Shown here one piece after another: positions 2,761 to 63,940 of a stretch of 64,000 bases of DNA. Origin of the DNA: Ailurus styani (Eukaryota > Chordata > Mammalia > Carnivora > Ailuridae); assembly GCA_002007465.1 (NCBI GenBank), contig LNAC01000751.1:294537-358536 (forward strand), given 5' to 3'. The stretch's first letter is position 1, and each line of letters opens with the position of its first letter. The translations under genes and the position numbers were made by a program. The notes under the pieces were generated by a model, which did no database searches, was not told the origin of the DNA, and worked only from the letters and a program-made list of their open reading frames with translations.

Positions 2761-3234
2761 TCACCATCCTGGCAGCTCTTCGCAATGTCCAGCTTGCGCC
2801 TGTGCTAGAGGGATCGATAGCCTTGCAGAGCCGAGGGGCGGGGCCCGGACCCGGTAGCGGCCTCGCCCCCGCTGACGCGCAGGCTGGGAGAGGTATTGAT
2901 AAAGGCACTGGAAGGCGTTGGAACCCTCCTCTCCCAGACACCCATACGCTTCTGTCACCTGGCGGATGTCATAAGGGGCAGAGGACAAGACGGGCGCCGT
3001 GGCGACCAGTCTGTCCAGCTCGGAGTCACCGTGTTGAGAAGCGCAGGCTGGGTCTGTCTCCCGTGCCTGCCTCTGGGGGACGGGAAAGTCTGGGGAGAGT
3101 GGGTCTGCCGTGGCTGAGGTGTGTGGGTGCTGGGGCTGTGTTCCTCCTGGCTGCAGGGCAGGGGCTGGAAGCCCTGCTTCTTGTCCTTTCTCGACACTCT
3201 TTCTCCATTTAACTCGGCGGCTCTTAAACCAGAC
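2761..3234 (-). CDS. PARGFX: PRD-class homeobox gene (ARGFX/PARGFX-like), last exon
   Basis: This exon would encode the end of homeodomain helix 3 and the C-terminal tail of an ARGFX-type transcription factor, a CRX-derived family active in early embryos. It follows a clear acceptor (cttcactccccag, before 3234) and begins with V-W-F-K-S-R-R-V-K-W, the recognition helix. The frame stays open for about 157 codons to a stop at 2761. Near the C terminus are LDRLVATAPVL, APYDI and FQCLYQYLS, which from memory resemble the C-terminal block of human ARGFX (ERLVASVPAL, DAYDI, FHCLYQYLS). Human ARGFX lies on another chromosome, while its proposed parent PARGFX belongs to the CRX-derived set, so PARGFX fits the locus better. 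Odd point: homeodomain Asn51, almost invariant and base-contacting, is Ser. The family is fairly sure; the exact orthologue is less so. Confidence 0.72.
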   Translation of the reverse strand, partial: VWFKSRRVKWRKSVEKGQEAGLPAPALQPGGTQPQHPHTSATADPLSPDFPVPQRQARETDPACASQHGDSELDRLVATAPVLSSAPYDIRQVTEAYGCLGEEGSNAFQCLYQYLSQPARQRGRGRYRVRAPPLGSARLSIPLAQAQAGHCEELPGW

Positions 3235-3734
3235 CTGGGGAGTGAAGAGGGGAGATGAGGGGAGGGTGTGAACCCAGAAAGTGGAGGGGACCCAGGGTGG
3301 TGGCCGTCCATCTTCCCTGGGAACCGGCTTCCTCGGGGAGGCGAGGGCGGACTTCTGCCCACTGTACCCGAGGCCGGGTAGGAGCTGTTTCTCACCCGTG
3401 GCCGGGATGGAGAAAGACAAAAGGAGGGGAGGGCTTGGACCCCAGAGCAGGAGTTGGGGGCACTCTGCTGAATGCCGGGAGCTCTCTGCAGGACAGAGGG
3501 CCAGGACCCCATAGGACAGCGTAGAGCGTGGGGTCTGACTGAGTTGGTCCTCAGCAAATATCTTTGTTAGTCTGGTCTGGTTGCTTAGTGCCCTCACTGA
3601 GCAAGTCCCAGGGACAAGCTTCAGCGAACAATGGCGTGTCCGACTCTACAGGATGGCCCTTCTCGTCTTGGGGGTTTTGTGTAAGGCACAGTGTAGGACA
3701 GTGCTCCACACGTAGAAAAGTTCCATCTCGACAG

Positions 3735-6078: not shown

Positions 6079-6366
6079 NNNNNNNNNNNNNNNNNNNNNN
6101 NNNNNNNNNNNNNNNNNNNNNNNNNNNNNNNNNNNNNNNNNNNNNNNNNNNNNNNNNNNNNNNNNNNNNNNNNNNNNNNNNNNNNNNNNNNNNNNNNNNN
6201 NNNNNNNNNNNNNNNNNNNNNNNNNNNNNNNNNNNNNNNNNNNNNNNNNNNNNNNNNNNNNNNNNNNNNNNNNNNNNNNNNNNNNNNNNNNNNNNNNNNN
6301 NNNNNNNNNNNNNNNNNNNNNNNNNNNNNNNNNNNNNNNNNNNNNNNNNNNNNNNNNNNNNNNNNN
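6079..6366. other. assembly gap (288 N)
   Basis: A run of 288 unknown bases. It is flanked by the 5' half of a + strand SINE and the 3' half of a minus-strand SINE, so the missing part is probably an inverted SINE pair that the assembler could not resolve. Apparent reading frames across it have no meaning. Confidence 0.95.
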
Positions 6367-6645: not shown

Positions 6646-6854
6646 GGGCGCCTGGGTGGCTCAGTGGGTTAAAGCCTCTGCTTTCGGCTCAGGTCATGAT
6701 CCCAGGGTCCTGGGATCGAGGCCCGCGTCGNGGCTCTCTGCTCAGCAGGGAGCCTGCTTCCTCCTCTCTCCTCTCTCTCTGCCTGCCTCTCTGCCTCCTT
6801 GTGATCTCTCTCCCTCTGTGAAATAAATAAATAAAATCTTTAAAAAAAAAAAAA
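6646..6854 (+). mobile_element. CAN-SINE
   Basis: Full-length, with target duplication GAATCTATA on both sides. A single N at 6731 sits in the body and marks a base the assembly left unresolved. Confidence 0.9.
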
Positions 6855-33116: not shown

Positions 33117-33204
33117 TCAGCAACCGGTGTCCAGGTGAGGTTTTGTTAGCCGAAGGGCGGCCAGCCTTCTGTGGGTCATTTTATTCAGGTCCATTCCAAA
33201 TAAC
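33117..33204 (-). CDS. NLRP12: NLRP12 exon 10 (C terminus)
   Basis: 88 nt coding for LFGMDLNKMTHRRLAALRLT, then KPHLDTGC and TGA (33117-33119). Human ends KPYLDIGC. The acceptor is ctgtgccctcag. With the two bases carried from exon 9 the frame closes exactly. Confidence 0.95.
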
Positions 33205-33627: not shown

Positions 33628-33798
33628 CAGAGGACTTGAAGTTTGCAGCCGGGATGACTCAGGCCCTTGCAGAGCAGCCTGACGCCGGCGTTCCCCAGGG
33701 TGTTGTTGGTCAGATAAAGCTCCCTCAGGGTCTGGCTGACTCCAAGCGTGGAAGAAAGTTCCTCACAAGCTTTGGCTGTGAGGCCGCAGCTATCCAGC
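33628..33798 (-). CDS. NLRP12: NLRP12 exon 9 (LRR)
   Basis: 171 nt, 57 codons, two leucine-rich repeats: LDSCGLTAKACEELSSTLG, then LRELYLTNNTLGNAGVRLLC. Acceptor cttcctcag; donor gtgaga. Open. Confidence 0.95.
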
Positions 33799-35459: not shown

Positions 35460-35630
35460 CACAGTTTCTCCAGCCTGCACGTGGGATGTCGCAGCCCCTC
35501 GCACAGCGGCCCCATGCCCGCGTCCTCCAGGTCACTGAAGCTCAGGTCCAGTTCCCGAAGGTGCGGGTTGGCCCGGAGCACAGCGCACACACCCTCGCAG
35601 GCGGCCGGGCTGAGCCTGCAGATGCCCAAC
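35460..35630 (-). CDS. NLRP12: NLRP12 exon 8 (LRR)
   Basis: 171 nt: LGICRLSPAACEGVCAVLR, then LRELDLSFSDLEDAGMGPLC. Acceptor cgtcttccag; donor gtgagt. Open. It lies in a GC-rich stretch that also gives long chance frames on the + strand. Confidence 0.95.
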
Positions 35631-39261: not shown

Positions 39262-39432
39262 CGAAGGGTCTGAAGCCTGCACTGGGGATGCGTGAGGCCC
39301 TCGCACAGCAGCAGCACGCCGGGGTCCCCCAGGTCATTCAGGCTTAGATCCAGCTCCGTCAGGCTCTGGTTCACACAGAGGGTGGAGGCGAGGTCCTCAC
39401 AGGCAGCAGCAGTGAGGTGGCAAATCTTTAAC
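39262..39432 (-). CDS. NLRP12: NLRP12 exon 7 (LRR)
   Basis: 171 nt: LKICHLTAAACEDLASTLC, then LTELDLSLNDLGDPGVLLLC. Acceptor tttccggcag; donor gtgagt. Open, and very close to human. Confidence 0.95.
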
Positions 39433-41884: not shown

Positions 41885-42055
41885 CACAGGATCTGCAGTC
41901 TACACGCCGGGTGCTTCAGGCCGTGACATAAGAACCTCAGCCCCGAATCCTCCAGCGCGTTCCCCGTGAGGTCCAACTCCACCAGGTGTCGGCTGGTGCT
42001 GAGCACGGACGCGATCTCGGGGCAGGCCCCGGCCTCCAGCTGACACTTCCTCAGT
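41885..42055 (-). CDS. NLRP12: NLRP12 exon 6 (LRR)
   Basis: 171 nt: LRKCQLEAGACPEIASVLS, then LVELDLTGNALEDSGLRFLC. The acceptor is ctttcctcccgag, with G before AG, which is unusual but valid; the donor is gtgagt. Open. Confidence 0.94.
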
Positions 42056-43209: not shown

Positions 43210-43380
43210 CGGATCACCTGCAGCCTGCATCCGGGATGCCGGAGCCCCTGGCACAGCAGCCTCACGCCCGGCAGCCCCAGCGCGTTGCCGCTGACGTCCA
43301 GCCTCGTTAGGGTCCGGTTGGCCATCAGGGCGGCCGCCAGGTCCTGGCAGGCAGAGCTGGCCATGCAGCACCTCTTCAGG
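43210..43380 (-). CDS. NLRP12: NLRP12 exon 5 (LRR)
   Basis: 171 nt: LKRCCMASSACQDLAAALM, then LTRLDVSGNALGLPGVRLLC. Acceptor tccctccccag; donor gtgagt. Open. Confidence 0.95.
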
Positions 43381-44077: not shown

Positions 44078-44248
44078 CTCAGGTTCCGAAGTCTGCAGCC
44101 GGGGTGTCTGAGCCCCTGACACAGGAGCCTCACACCCCCACTGCCCAGCACGTTGCGGGACAAAACCAGCTCGGTCAGGGTGGGCCTGGTGCTCAGAGCG
44201 GCGGCGAGCTGTTTGCTGTAGGCCTCGGGCAAAACGTTTTTCTCGGGT
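44078..44248 (-). CDS. NLRP12: NLRP12 exon 4 (LRR)
   Basis: 171 nt: PEKNVLPEAYSKQLAAALS, then LTELVLSRNVLGSGGVRLLC. Acceptor ccctccttgcag; donor gtcagt. The first base completes the codon begun in exon 3 (TC+A). Open. Confidence 0.95.
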
Positions 44249-48494: not shown

Positions 48495-50196
48495 GACTGG
48501 GCCGGTGGCGTCTGGGGTCCCGACGCCCGTCTCCCCCCCTCATCCTTGTCCCTGCTGTAGGCGGCCCCATGCAAATGCAGCGCCAGGACATTCCTGCAGC
48601 TCTTCACACAAAAGGAGGAAATCACGTGCTCCATCTTGGTGGCCATGTTGCTGACCACCACCACCTGGAAGTGGCTCAGGGCCTGTTGGATGAACTCCTC
48701 TTCCTGGATCTCGTAGAGACAGCTGAAGAGCTCCAGGGAGCCCTGCCGCAGAGCAGAGCCCTCGCTCTGAGCCTTCCTTTGAATCCACCGCAGCAGCTCG
48801 ACCTTGACGTGAGGCGAGACCTTCCAGCAAAGACTCTCCTCCAGGTAGCGCCTCGTCTCCTCGTTCAGGAGTCCAAACAAGAAACGGACGGTGAGCGCCA
48901 AGAAGCTCCGTTCTGAAAACCCATACTCAGCCAGCAGCCTCGTCACGGTCTGCTCCAGGCCGGCCCCGCTCTCCCCGGGATCCAAGAGGTAGGACATGGC
49001 AGCGAAGAACTCCTGGAAGCTCAGATGGATGAAGCTGTAGAACGTTTCGCAGTTGATGTCCTTCTGGAAGATGTTCATGTTGAGGAAGGAAGACACATCG
49101 GCCCCGCAGAGGCCGTGCTTCCGGAGGTCCTGCTCCTCAAACAGGATCTTCTGGTTCCAGAGGCCGTCGGCCGCCAAGGAGCACAGCCCTCTCAGGTTGG
49201 GAGGGGGCTGGAGAGTGGGGCTCCCTGGCTTGGGCTGCATCAGACTCAGGAGGTAGAGCATGTACACCGCGGTTGTGGTCCTGGACGTCTGTCTCAGAAG
49301 CCCCCCGTCCTCCAGCTGCTGCTTGAGGCAGGTGCAAACCACCCAGCACACCATGGGGACGAAGCACAGAGTGAAGAGGGGCTCATTGTCCCTCGTGAAA
49401 TGGAAGACTTGGCCAGCCTGCTCCGCATCCTGGAGATACTTGTAGAAGTACTCCTTCCTTTCTGCCTCCGAGAAGCCCAGGATCTCCACGTGCCTGGGGT
49501 GCTCCAGCCAGTGGTGGAGTTTCTCCAAAGCCGTGGGCCTGGTGGTGATGAGCACTGACCCCTCGGGCAGCAGCTTCTTCCGAATCAGGCTGCAAAGGAG
49601 CAGCTCTGTGGGCCGTTTCTCCTCCCAGCAGAGGCACCAGGGGCCCCGAGGCTCGTGGAAAGAGGGTTTTAGCTCATCAAAGCCGTCGATGATGAACAGG
49701 AGGCGCTCAGGCGCGCGGACGAGCTCCTGGAGGGGCGCGCTGGGCTCGGGCCAGCAGCTGGAGATGAGGTCGTGGGCGCTCTGCTCCGCGGTGCTCTGGT
49801 TCATCTCCCGGCAGTTGATGTAGAAGACGTAATCGAACCTGTCCTGGAAGAGCCGCCCGTCGGCCCAGTCCAGCATCACCTTGTGGGCCAGCATGGACTT
49901 GCCCACCCCTGCGGCTCCCTGCAGGACCACGGTGCGCGGCGGCTCGGGGCGCTCCTCGTCCGGCTCGAAGAGCGTCTCCACCTGGATGAAGCTGGCCTGG
50001 GGCCCCATGGTTCTCGCCTGTCCCCAGCCTGTGTCCAAAAGCTTCTGCTGGGCCCGCATGGGGCTGGAGTGCTCCTTCACCAGGAGGAGGCGGGTGTACC
50101 TGTGGCTGAGGTTGACGCATTCCCCTAGGCGCGCATTGCGGTCTTCCATCAGCCGGAACTTCCTGCGCACATAGTCCCTGTAGGTTTCCCGGGGAT
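48495..50196 (-). CDS. NLRP12: NLRP12 exon 3 (NACHT)
   Basis: 1,702 nt encoding the NACHT ATPase domain with its winged-helix and superhelical parts. It starts DPRETYRDYVRRKFRL. Walker A is GAAGVGKSML, Walker B region LLFIIDGFDEL, then ITTRPTALEKL (sensor) and LSFQEFFAAM further on. No stop or frameshift in 567 codons. The donor is gtaagt after CAGTC. The acceptor is faulty: the polypyrimidine tract cctccttcctcccc is followed by gttGG just before the exon's first base (A, 50196), where AG is required. The phase of exon 2 fixes this boundary. The high conservation argues that any inactivation is recent. Confidence 0.96.
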
Positions 50197-51189
50197 CCAA
50201 CGGGGAGGAAGGAGGGTCCGTGGGAGACTCATCAGCAACGGTTCAGCGATTGTGAGTTAATGCAAACCACGGTCTACTGCCTACTTGTTCTGCAATACCC
50301 ACAGGAGGGTTTTCTGGATGGAGCCTGGGAACCTTGGTACTTCCCTATAAAGATCTCCCCTTCTCTTGGGAAGCAGACACACGAACATGGCAACTGTCCT
50401 TAGGCACAGTATTGTATCCTTGCTACTCGAACGGTGGTCCACACCCGGGAGCTGACGGAAGACCACAAGGGCACTAAGGCACGTGTCAGTCTCGGCCACT
50501 GGTTCCCTCGGGTCCTCCCGGTGAAGAGACACTGAATCCCGTGTGGGCTCACAAGGAGCTGGCAGGAAATGCAAACGTGAGCCCCACTCCCCACCTACTG
50601 CATCAGAAACTGCATTTCTAACAAGACTGATGCGTAATTTACTTGCACATTTGAGATGACAGTGCTGCCAAGTTTTCTGCGCCCCTTTTGGAAAAAGGCA
50701 GATACGTATCTGTAGCAGATTCTCTAAGTCCCGTGCTTAAAGTCTCTTTGGGAAATCTACTTGGTATAGGAGTGAATGTGTAATCTAGAACAGCGGTGCT
50801 CAGCAGGGTGGTGCTGTCCGCCCTGGGGATTTCTGGCAAGGTCCGGAGATAGTTTTGGCTGCAGCAACGGGGGGCTGGGGGGGGCAGGCTACTACCATCT
50901 AGTGGGTGGAGGCCGGGGAGGCTGCTCAAATCCTACAGTGCCCAGGACGCCCCGCAACAGAGAATGATCCAGCCCAAACTGCCGGGGGTGCCTGGTGGGG
51001 GAACCCTGGGCCAGACAAAAATGTAACCCTTTTCTGTTTGGATGTCACCAGTGGCCCATATGATCTGCCCAAAGGAAGGTAAACAAGAGATCTAAATTTG
51101 ATCCCAGGACTGTCTCGAAAGGAACGCATGTACTCTTTTATTTTTAGTTGTAGTAAAATATATATACATAAACTAAATTTCGCATTTTA

Positions 51190-52741: not shown

Positions 52742-52822
52742 CTCTTCTTGGAGCTCCAGGAAGGACTTGCCGAGAACATGCTGACTGGCTTCCCAGGGAG
52801 GATGGTCCACCAGGTGGAGTAT
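52742..52822 (-). CDS. NLRP12: NLRP12 exon 2 (linker)
   Basis: 81 nt encoding the linker between the pyrin and NACHT domains: TPPGGPSSLGSQSACSRQV, then LPGAPRR. The human linker starts TPPGGPSSLGNQSTCLLEV. Acceptor tgtctcttccag; donor AAGAG then gtgagc. Phase 1 at both ends. Open. Confidence 0.93.
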
Positions 52823-54430: not shown

Positions 54431-55460
54431 GGCATCACGCCGGGAACTGCAAACCGGCCCGAGCAGTATTTACACCACGGAGAGCCGCCGCTGCTACGGG
54501 CCAGGGTCTCTGTTTTCTGACGCGCGCCCCCAACAGCAGCCGGGACCTGCTGCGCTGAGCCTGACACGCTCTGCCTGGCTTCTCCCGGGAGCTCTGGCCG
54601 GGGGCAAACCGTTTCCTTACCTCTGTAACGGGGTGTCCTACTCGTGCCTCGCGCCCGGCGCTGAGAGCACCCAGCGCGTCCTCGTGCAGCGTGGACGCCG
54701 TGTGGTAGGAGGGGCCCCTGGGAGCAGCCCCGACCGTCTCAGAGGACGGGGGGCACAGGAAGCGAACTCGGGGCGCGGCAGAAGCCAGACAGGCTGAGGG
54801 CAAGCGGCAGGCCCGGGGGAGGAAGGAGCTGGCGCACACCCGGGCCTCCAGGGCTCTGGGGGCCAAGCGGGGATTTCCCAGGCAACGGCGGCAGAGCGAG
54901 GGCACCGCGGGCAGATCGCGGCGCGAGCAAGGCCAAGGGCAGACGCGGGAGCGGTGCCGTGCGCCTCGCCTGTGGCCCGCGGCCCCTTACGCCTCACCGG
55001 GTCCTCCCTCCGGCCTCACTGCCACAGGTCGCGCCGGTCGATGCGCTGGAAGAGGCGCAGCGCCAGCGGCCAGGAGGCGTCCGGGCCGCAGCGCGTCACC
55101 AGCAGCCGCGCCGCGTCCAGCCGCCCCCAGGGGATCCTGCCCGCCTCCGCCTCGGCGCCCAGGTACAGCTTGAACTTCTTCAGCTCCGCCGCCTCCAGCT
55201 CCTCCAGGTAGGCCGAGAGGCGACAGAGGCCGGGGCCGGCCGGGGCTCGGGGCATGGGGCCGGCGCCGAGCGCGTCCGGGGAGCGAGGCGCACCTCCCCT
55301 GCCCGCGGAGCGCGGAGTCCTGGTGTCAAGTAGCGCGCCCTCCGCCCGCAGGGCCGCCGCCTGCGCCGCCTCGCCCCAGGTCGCCGGCGTTCCCTTCCTG
55401 GGAGAGGACGTGGGGCAGATGAGGAAATCCCGGGGCCCGCTCGACCATGAGAAAGACTTT
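54430..55460. promoter_or_regulatory. CpG-rich island over NLRP12 exon 1
   Basis: Dense CpG and high GC content across intron 1 start, exon 1 and the 5' flank. A CpG context makes a CGA to TGA change in exon 1 an easy mutation. The transcription start itself is not identified; no TATA box was found. Confidence 0.6.
54991..55255 (-). CDS. NLRP12: NLRP12 exon 1 (pyrin domain) with premature stop
   Basis: The ATG is at 55253-55255. The frame reads MPRAPAGPGLCRLSAYLEEL, EAAELKKFKLYL, GAEAEAGRIPWG, RLDAARLLVTRCGP and FQRIDRRDLWQ, then TGA at 55016-55018 and GRREDPVR up to the donor (gtaagg, exon end 54991). Human has DLWERGQREDLVRD here, so the TGA replaces an Arg codon. The exon's phase still fits exon 2. 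Between IPWG and the ARLL helix about six residues are missing, and about two more lie in the loop before. A GTGAGG at the stop itself could act as a cryptic donor, but it would put exon 2 out of frame. As read, the product is a 79-residue partial pyrin domain. Confidence 0.93.
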
Positions 55461-62699: not shown

Positions 62700-62840
62700 C
62701 CATAAGATGGAAATCACCCTTGCAGCCTACAGATGGGGAAACCGAGGCCCGGGGGAGCCCCGGGGGAGGGTGCCTGTTTGGCAGAGCTAGACAGTGAGGG
62801 GACGTGACTTCCAAACTCACATCTCTCGGCCTCCCAGGTC
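62700..62840 (-). repeat. MIR fragment, antisense
   Basis: 'tacagatggggaaaccgagg' followed by 'cagagctagacagtgagg', the reverse of the MIR 3' half. Confidence 0.7.
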
Positions 62841-63940
62841 CAGCTTTTAGACCCGTTATCCGCTCGGTAAGGACACTTACTGAGCTTCCAGGCGACTCCT
62901 CCAATTTGGGGTTCACTGGGGCTCGAAGAAGCGACGTGACCTGCACCACCACCGAGCACACCGAAGCTGCGGTCCCCACTCCCGCTGCCTGGGGCCTCCC
63001 GTCCGGCGGTCACAGTCACCCCTTCCCCGGCCTGTGCACAGGGTTGCGAAACTTCCTACAGAGCGGTGTCCTCACCACCCCCCCGGCTCTGACCGCAGCC
63101 TGGAGGAAGTGCCCAGCCCCGCGGGCCCTGCCCCCACGGGGCTGGGTCTGTCTTCTGAAGCCCTCCAGCATCGCCCCTGTTTCTGCCCTCACCAACCAGC
63201 CAGAGCAGGCCACTTCCTGCGGACATGAAAACTCAGTAGTGCGAGGCACTCCACGACAATCTGTTCTGTTCTAACACCTCCGATCGGGTCACGCCTCCCC
63301 GCCACAAGCTCTCCTCGGACGCAGGAGGAGGACGCTTGGCAGAAGTTAGCACGGTGTGGAATTCTGTACTGCCCTCACCCCGTTAGTCTACGACCACCAG
63401 GAACCCCCCCCACTCGGCCGGCTAAGTCAGGTCTGTTCCAGGAGAACCTGGGGCGAGGTCTGCACCGGGGATCGAGCTCTGGGCGTGGAGCGTGGGTCCC
63501 CCCACCTCCTCTCCCCGAGTTTCAGGGTTCCCAAACTGCGGTCTCAGGAAGACCCTCCCCATTCTGCCCCTTCATCTGGACCTCCCCACTCCACGCTCTG
63601 GGAATCTGCCTTTGGAGCCGACTGAGTAGGGAAAGCTTGCCAGGGTGATGTAATGCAGAATCCCAGAAACCACGCGGCCAGCAAGGACGGGCCTGTCTTT
63701 CTCCCCGGCAGAGGTATGGGCCTGGCACGAGGCCAGCCGCTGGCTCTCTTCCAGACGCATCGCGGCCTGGGCTCCTGGGTGCAGATTGCTTCCACGCCTG
63801 GACCTGAGGGGGTCGCTGCTGCTCCCTCCAGACCCCGGCAGCGGGAGGATGGAAGGAGACAACGGAAGGGGAGCAGGCAGTTTTCTTAGGAAACCAGGGT
63901 CCATACAGTACGCAGATCACCTCCCTTCTACCCAGGCCTC
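62841..63940. other. no supported gene
   Basis: GC-rich unique sequence with overlapping frames of 60-156 codons on both strands. None shows a domain or a clear exon boundary set. Confidence 0.45.

What the first reader, a model, noticed from the sequence alone, without database searches (positions are those of the whole stretch)
54991..55255. Premature in-frame stop in the pyrin exon of NLRP12
Exon 1 reads DLWQ, TGA, then GRREDPVR and an intact donor. Human NLRP12 has DLWERGQREDLVRD at the same place, so the TGA (55016-55018) replaces an Arg codon inside real coding sequence, not intron. It lies in CpG-dense DNA, so a CGA to TGA change is an easy event. The full receptor cannot be made from this start.
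Basis: partly seen in the sequence, partly recalled or inferred. Interest (0 to 1): 0.85.

Follow-up and report, generated by a model that had tools for sequence, protein, structure and literature searches.

The report
Disabled NLRP12 immune gene in carnivore
In this carnivore genome the only copy found of the immune sensor gene NLRP12 has a stop signal inside its first domain and splice damage nearby, so its normal full-length protein probably cannot be made, although the rest of the gene still looks intact.

Summary
The TGA is in the assembly: minus strand 55018-55016, codon 80 of the 265-nt pyrin exon (54991-55255) of a complete ten-exon NLRP12 gene. It stands where 134 of 146 related proteins have Arg, 6 Lys, 4 Gln (2 rows unusable; rows include isoforms). 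Walrus, seals, bear, mink and human have Arg; dog has Lys. It is the only internal stop in 1,053 codons. I add three things. (1) The exon 3 acceptor reads GG, not AG (50198-50197); the other 17 of 18 splice dinucleotides are canonical, and NLRP3 in this genome keeps AG at the matching place. (2) Six PYD residues are deleted, four of them invariant in 24 orthologues. (3) The exon 1 donor lacks its usual -1 G. No second NLRP12 was found. Best reading: lineage-specific, fairly recent loss of the PYD-bearing receptor. Exon 3 changes still avoid conserved sites, so a surviving PYD-less product stays open. The CGA-to-TGA origin, mustelid identity and fixation are unproven. Exon 1 is 75% GC and no reads were available.

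The parts
54991..55255 (-). NLRP12 exon 1 (pyrin domain), ATG at 55255-55253, 265 nt, ends in phase 1
   Evidence: (PYRIN PF02758, E 7.6e-16)
55016..55018 (-). In-frame TGA, codon 80; Arg in 134 of 146 related rows
55120..55121 (-). Place of the six-residue deletion (walrus LEPAGP, residues 46-51), between window residues R45 and L46
   Evidence: position counted from the sequence
54989..54990 (-). Canonical exon 1 donor GT (GGC|GTAAGG), lowest score of nine donors on recalled frequencies; -1 base is C instead of the usual G
55018..55019 (-). Alternative donor GT (GCA|GTGAGG) whose T is the T of the TGA; would give a 236-nt exon 1 without the stop, in phase 2
54996..54997 (-). Alternative donor GT (CCG|GTGAGG), scores above the canonical one, keeps the TGA
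52742..52822 (-). Exon 2 (linker), 81 nt, canonical ag and gt
50197..50198 (-). Exon 3 acceptor reads GG (ccctccttcctccccgttGG|ATCC) instead of AG
50178..50179 (-). First AG downstream of the GG acceptor (aaacctacAG|GGAC), possible cryptic acceptor, phase 2
48495..50196 (-). Exon 3 (FISNA, NACHT, winged helix, HD2), 1702 nt, open
50147..50149 (-). First in-frame ATG of exon 3 (LMEDRN), possible start of a PYD-less product
   Evidence: position counted from the sequence
44078..44248 (-). Exon 4 (LRR), 171 nt
43210..43380 (-). Exon 5 (LRR), 171 nt
41885..42055 (-). Exon 6 (LRR), 171 nt
39262..39432 (-). Exon 7 (LRR), 171 nt
35460..35630 (-). Exon 8 (LRR), 171 nt
33628..33798 (-). Exon 9 (LRR), 171 nt
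33117..33204 (-). Exon 10, 88 nt, ends with the normal stop TGA

Best explanation
This is the only NLRP12 orthologue found in the genome of an arctoid carnivore, recently disabled at its 5' end. Shown in the sequence: a nonsense codon in the pyrin exon, GG where exon 3 should have its acceptor AG, loss of the usual -1 G of the exon 1 donor, and an in-frame deletion of six PYD residues of which four are otherwise invariant, in a ten-exon gene that is otherwise open. Inferred: normally spliced mRNA would stop at codon 80, in the middle of PYD helix 6, with all nine junctions downstream, so it should be degraded by nonsense-mediated decay or yield only a 79-residue PYD fragment; the GG would also hinder joining of exon 2 to exon 3. 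PYD-dependent roles of NLRP12 (recruiting ASC, PANoptosome assembly; the PYD's part in this is recalled) are then lost. The loss would be recent on the scale of the branch, because exon 3 still bears the mark of purifying selection.
For: TGA opposite conserved Arg. Model with one internal stop in 1,053 codons and 17 of 18 canonical splice dinucleotides. The exception lies where relatives join exon 2 to exon 3: 115 of 146 rows by a strict pattern; of the other 31, 13 look joined there by eye (one, Tupaia, with extra residues), 10 could not be scored, 8 differ. Same-genome control: NLRP3 has an open PYD exon and TTTACTCCAG|ATTAC at the matching acceptor. Deleted residues E, A, G, P are invariant in 24 orthologues and present in 143, 144, 143 and 143 of 146 rows, two gaps being unusable rows. 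Donor -1 G in 136 of 138. No second copy: exon 1 DNA matches only itself; the next NACHT match to walrus NLRP12 is NLRP3 at 56%. Exon 3: 2 of 23 private changes fall in columns at least 97% conserved, 10.0 expected at random, binomial 0.0004. AlphaFold: 79-residue fragment four helices, mean pLDDT 63.8; walrus PYD six helices, block pLDDT 68-84 over residues 11-90, the TGA position (R86) inside helix 81-89.
Against: One assembly, no reads. Exon 1 is 75% GC, where errors are likelier. One nonsense codon and no frameshift in the model. The exon 3 pattern fits an active gene as well as a recent loss, and bear (3 of 23) and mink (1 of 13) show it too. All three mink models listed bypass the exon 2-3 junction, so the acceptor change may be older, shared and tolerated by other splicing; five dingo, bear and elephant seal models also differ there, though dog and bear have other models with the usual junction. 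The AG of relatives is inferred from protein joins, not read from DNA. The genome search scored 43 of 70 candidates, so a diverged second copy is not strictly excluded. Both AlphaFold models rest on shallow alignments (25 and 24 rows), and the control was folded as part of the whole protein. No transcript evidence.
Confidence: 0.7

Rival explanations
1. A PYD-less NLRP12 persists: transcription or translation starts downstream (first in-frame ATG of exon 3, 50149-50147), giving a NACHT-LRR protein that keeps PYD-independent roles such as NOD2 inhibition while PYD functions are lost.
For: Exons 3-10 open and in phase; exon 3 private changes avoid conserved columns, 2 of 23 against 10.0 expected; damage sits in exon 1 and at the exon 3 acceptor. 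In human cells the PYD (residues 1-98) was dispensable for NOD2 binding (passages of PMC6297353).
Against: Bear and mink, with intact PYD models, show the same exon 3 pattern (3 of 23, 1 of 13), so it does not single out a PYD-less function. LRR private changes in the window show no clear avoidance (4 of 12 against 5.6 expected, p 0.27). Promoters and transcripts were not examined.
Confidence: 0.13
2. Frame-restoring cryptic splicing: donor GCA|GTGAGG (its T is the T of the TGA) plus exon 2 in a shifted open frame plus the first AG after the GG acceptor (50179-50178) gives a full receptor with a replaced linker.
For: The combination is open to the end of exon 3. A Mirounga leonina gene prediction reads exon 2 in the same shifted frame and joins it at the same place (SKK|RDYVRRKF).
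Against: Open combinations are common: 100 of the 1,170 tested (13 donors, 45 acceptors, exon 2 in or out), and this one ranks 13th of the 100 on summed score. Both sites score low on recalled matrices (4.7 and about 0.6), and the stronger donor at 54998 (8.8) keeps the TGA. The elephant seal protein is already out of frame in its PYD, so its annotation is suspect.
Confidence: 0.06
3. Assembly or sequencing error, or a rare allele in the sequenced animal, in a GC-rich exon.
For: Exon 1 is 75% GC with 32 CpGs; the window has single Ns at six places and an N run at 6079-6366; no reads were available.
Against: Several separate changes: stop, donor base and 18-nt deletion in exon 1, and an acceptor change about 4.8 kb away. 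In the same genome the two other PYD exons matched, and the six next-best NACHT matches, carry no stop; weaker matches there, such as those on C832, do.
Confidence: 0.11

Closest known systems
Mammalian NLRP12 (human PDB 2L6A PYD; walrus, seal, bear, dog and mink proteins)
   Same: Ten-exon order and phases, PYD-FISNA-NACHT-HD2-LRR; 520 of 567 residues (91.7%) identical to walrus in exon 3
   Different: TGA in the PYD exon, deleted invariant PYD residues, weak exon 1 donor, GG at the exon 3 acceptor
Lost or pseudogenised inflammasome genes in Carnivora (NAIP, NLRC4, NLRP1, AIM2)
   Same: Lineage-specific loss of innate sensors in the same order of mammals (passages of PMC8411117; of PMC8560141)
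   Different: NLRP12 is not among them in what I saw: the main text of PMC8411117 has no occurrence of the name, and a table in PMC8560141 marks NLRP12 present in all four species columns, dog among them
Human NLRP12 loss-of-function variants of NLRP12-AID/FCAS2 (p.Arg284*, a splice insertion)
   Same: Nonsense and splice loss of the same gene (passages of PMC13116425 and PMC6297353)
   Different: Disease alleles in people; here the assembled sequence of an animal genome, and earlier in the gene
Pyrin-only proteins (POPs; recalled, plus abstract starts listed)
   Same: A stop after most of the PYD would leave a PYD-only product
   Different: Here helix 6 is cut and the fold model is poor; no transcript known

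Membership tests
NLRP12 orthologue | PYD, FISNA, NACHT, HD2 and LRR exons in order, best match NLRP12 | tested here: met
   (best hit walrus NLRP12, 89% over the whole query)
NLRP12 orthologue | Continuous coding frame from PYD to LRR with canonical splice sites | tested here: not met
   TGA in exon 1; GG acceptor at exon 3
Unitary pseudogene | Disabling changes in the only copy | tested here: met
   limited to this assembly and to the candidates scored (43 of 70)
Unitary pseudogene | Relatives keep an intact coding sequence | tested here: met
   walrus, seals, bear, dog proteins; the mink models have an intact PYD but an unusual exon 2-3 region. Protein records only
Unitary pseudogene | Fixed in the species and not expressed as a working protein | not testable with these tools
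   no reads, population or RNA data
Unitary pseudogene | Relaxed constraint across the gene | tested here: inconclusive
   private changes in conserved columns: exon 3 2 of 23, LRR 4 of 12, exon 1 2 of 7 against 0 of 10 for four relatives, Fisher p 0.15
Pyrin-only protein | Complete six-helix PYD | tested here: not met
   stop at the residue that lies inside helix 6 of the walrus model; four helices predicted, at low confidence

The most novel reading that the evidence does not exclude
The lineage has split NLRP12's functions: the PYD arm (inflammasome/PANoptosome) has been lost through several hits around exons 1-3, while exons 3-10 stay under selection as a PYD-less regulator, for example of NOD2, started from exon 3.
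Probability: 0.13. Interest if true: 0.65.

Novelty: new member of a known kind. Interest (0 to 1): 0.42.

Why it matters
Carnivores have already lost several inflammasome sensors (PMC8411117, passages). NLRP12 is described as a brake on NF-kB and NOD2 and as a PANoptosome sensor (passages). If it is also dead in one lineage, that lineage is a natural knockout of a gene whose loss in people gives autoinflammatory disease. It also warns against taking carnivore NLRP12 annotations at face value: 8 of the 146 rows, all of them caniform models, depart from the usual exon 2-3 join.

Tried and rejected
Second NLRP12 copy as a rescue: none found. Reading the TGA as intronic: rejected, the exon continues to a phase-1 donor and matches human through it. 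Extending exon 3 upstream to acceptor 50289 (score 6.1): an in-frame TGA follows. Naming the species: the exon 3 tree groups the window with bear, mink and pinnipeds (97), but inside that group it joins bear plus mink at 66, with bear and mink paired at 69, which is not the accepted carnivore tree (recalled), so no family is claimed. The third protein search was not used. Plasmid DNA search with exon 1: no match. Direct repeats around exon 1: only short families, nothing that explains the deletion. A pyrin-domain census of the genome could not be run: no PF02758 request to the genome search was answered, so the same-genome control rests on the matches. Flank beyond the window for synteny: L002-L005 read only N and L006 partly N; L007-L009 gave no ORF that I recognised. 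Pfam found nothing in the ORFs at 2764-3645 and 62798-63274. Literature: the listings showed no title or abstract start reporting NLRP12 inactivation in a carnivore; that covers only this library.

Full report
What is there. The minus strand holds a complete NLRP12 gene: exon 1 at 54991-55255, exon 2 at 52742-52822, exon 3 at 48495-50196, exons 4-9 of 171 nt each, exon 10 ending at 33117. Phases agree at every junction, and the model has 1,054 codons including the end stop, with one internal stop. That stop is the reported TGA at 55018-55016, codon 80. Aligned to the human PYD structure 2L6A, the stop faces Arg in DLWERGQRED.

How unusual. The two protein searches listed the best 120 of 988 hits and 109 hits; together 146 proteins, many of them isoforms of one species. 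134 have Arg at this column, 6 Lys, 4 Gln; the other 2 (S, V) are a bat protein without a PYD and a fusion construct whose PYD my alignment cut off. An earlier alignment of the first 120 gave R 111, K 4, Q 3, T 1, gap 1. Of the 24 carnivore rows, 21 have R and 3 K (dog, dingo); one of the 21, elephant seal P0027, is out of frame there, so its R means nothing.

Further damage. (a) Exon 3 should begin at ATCCCC, because exon 2 ends in phase 1 and relatives join ...R/K-D-P... there. It is preceded by a strong pyrimidine tract and then GG at 50198-50197, not AG. All nine donors are GT and the other eight acceptors AG. (b) Six residues are missing (walrus LEPAGP, just before the helix at 51-62 of the walrus model); E, A, G and P among them are invariant in 24 orthologues and present in 143, 144, 143 and 143 of 146 rows. 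(c) The last base of exon 1 is C; the junction codon starts with G in 136 of 138 rows with a residue, and the donor scores lowest of nine on recalled frequencies, 3.74. Read-through models of bear, mink and dingo (RGKE) agree with G at that place.

Controls. The same genome's NLRP3 (named by matches to solved structures) has an open PYD exon and AG at the matching acceptor. Three PYD exons were matched in the genome with walrus NLRP12: NLRP12's own has a stop inside, the two others have none. Against this, some weaker matches in that list do carry stops, several of them on contig C832. No other NLRP12 copy was found.

Selection. Private changes are counted against close carnivores, and conservation in up to 37 other mammals (two feliforms among them). 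Exon 3: window 2 of 23 in columns at least 97% conserved, 10.0 expected at random (p 0.0004); bear 3 of 23, mink 1 of 13, dog 3 of 12, walrus 0 of 2. Exon 1: window 2 of 7 against 0 of 10 for mink, dog, bear and walrus together (Fisher p 0.15). LRR exons: window 4 of 12 (5.6 expected, p 0.27), mink 9 of 22 (its model is partly aberrant), bear 2 of 6, dog 0 of 9, walrus 0 of 2. So most exon 3 changes arose under constraint: either the loss is recent, or the NACHT part is still used. The exon 3 branch of the window (0.072) is longer than mink's (0.044) and close to bear's (0.078).

Mechanism. With canonical splicing the ribosome stops at codon 80, inside helix 6 of the PYD (walrus model helix 81-89, TGA at residue 86). 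The 79-residue fragment is predicted at low confidence with four helices (mean pLDDT 63.8), against six helices for the walrus PYD folded as part of the whole protein. The message would be a decay target, and joining of exon 2 to exon 3 is impaired in any case. These steps are inferred from general rules.

Escape routes. An alternative donor GCA|GTGAGG overlaps the TGA. Joined to exon 2 and to the first AG after the GG acceptor it restores the frame with a changed linker. But 100 of 1,170 combinations tested are open, this one ranks 13th of them, its sites are weak, and a stronger alternative donor at 54998 keeps the TGA. A start at the first ATG of exon 3 would give a PYD-less protein; in human cells the PYD was dispensable for NOD2 binding (passages of PMC6297353).

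Limits. No reads, no RNA, one assembly; exon 1 is 75% GC. The AG of relatives is inferred from protein joins. Three of three mink models listed bypass the exon 2-3 junction, as do five other caniform models, so the acceptor change might be shared with mink. The CpG origin of the TGA is not shown.

Known context (passages only). NAIP/NLRC4 loss in Canidae and NLRP1 loss in Felidae are published (PMC8411117). A table in PMC8560141 gives NLRP12 as conserved in its four species. A wolverine genome paper lists an NLRP12 accession (PMC9339297). A SARS-CoV-2 protease paper compared NLRP12 cleavage sites across 21 species, ferrets discussed among them, and called the European mink annotation incomplete (PMC7850364). 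The listings showed no report of NLRP12 loss in a carnivore.

Noticed in passing
window 2761-3645, minus: ORF with VWFKSRRVKWRKS, like helix 3 of a homeodomain; perhaps DPRX, a recalled neighbour of human NLRP12. No Pfam hit at 1e-3.
   Followed up: partly
P0019, P0031, P0039 (mink): All three mink NLRP12 models listed lack exon 2 and read exon 3 from upstream of its usual acceptor (SSPLDPQETY), as do two dingo models and one bear model; possibly annotation artefacts, possibly an unstable acceptor in caniforms.
   Followed up: partly
window 50196-50230: Inference from translated models, not from DNA: the intron end seems to have one C fewer in its pyrimidine tract than in mink, bear and dingo, so their in-frame extension of exon 3 would be out of frame here.
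   Followed up: partly
G000:C832:29536-47053: A further NLR-like locus with stops inside several of its matches.
   Followed up: no
window 6079-6366 and single Ns at 6731, 7601, 38055, 45932, 46181, 58435: N run and scattered single Ns; the 40 kb next to the window's right end that I fetched read only N.
   Followed up: no
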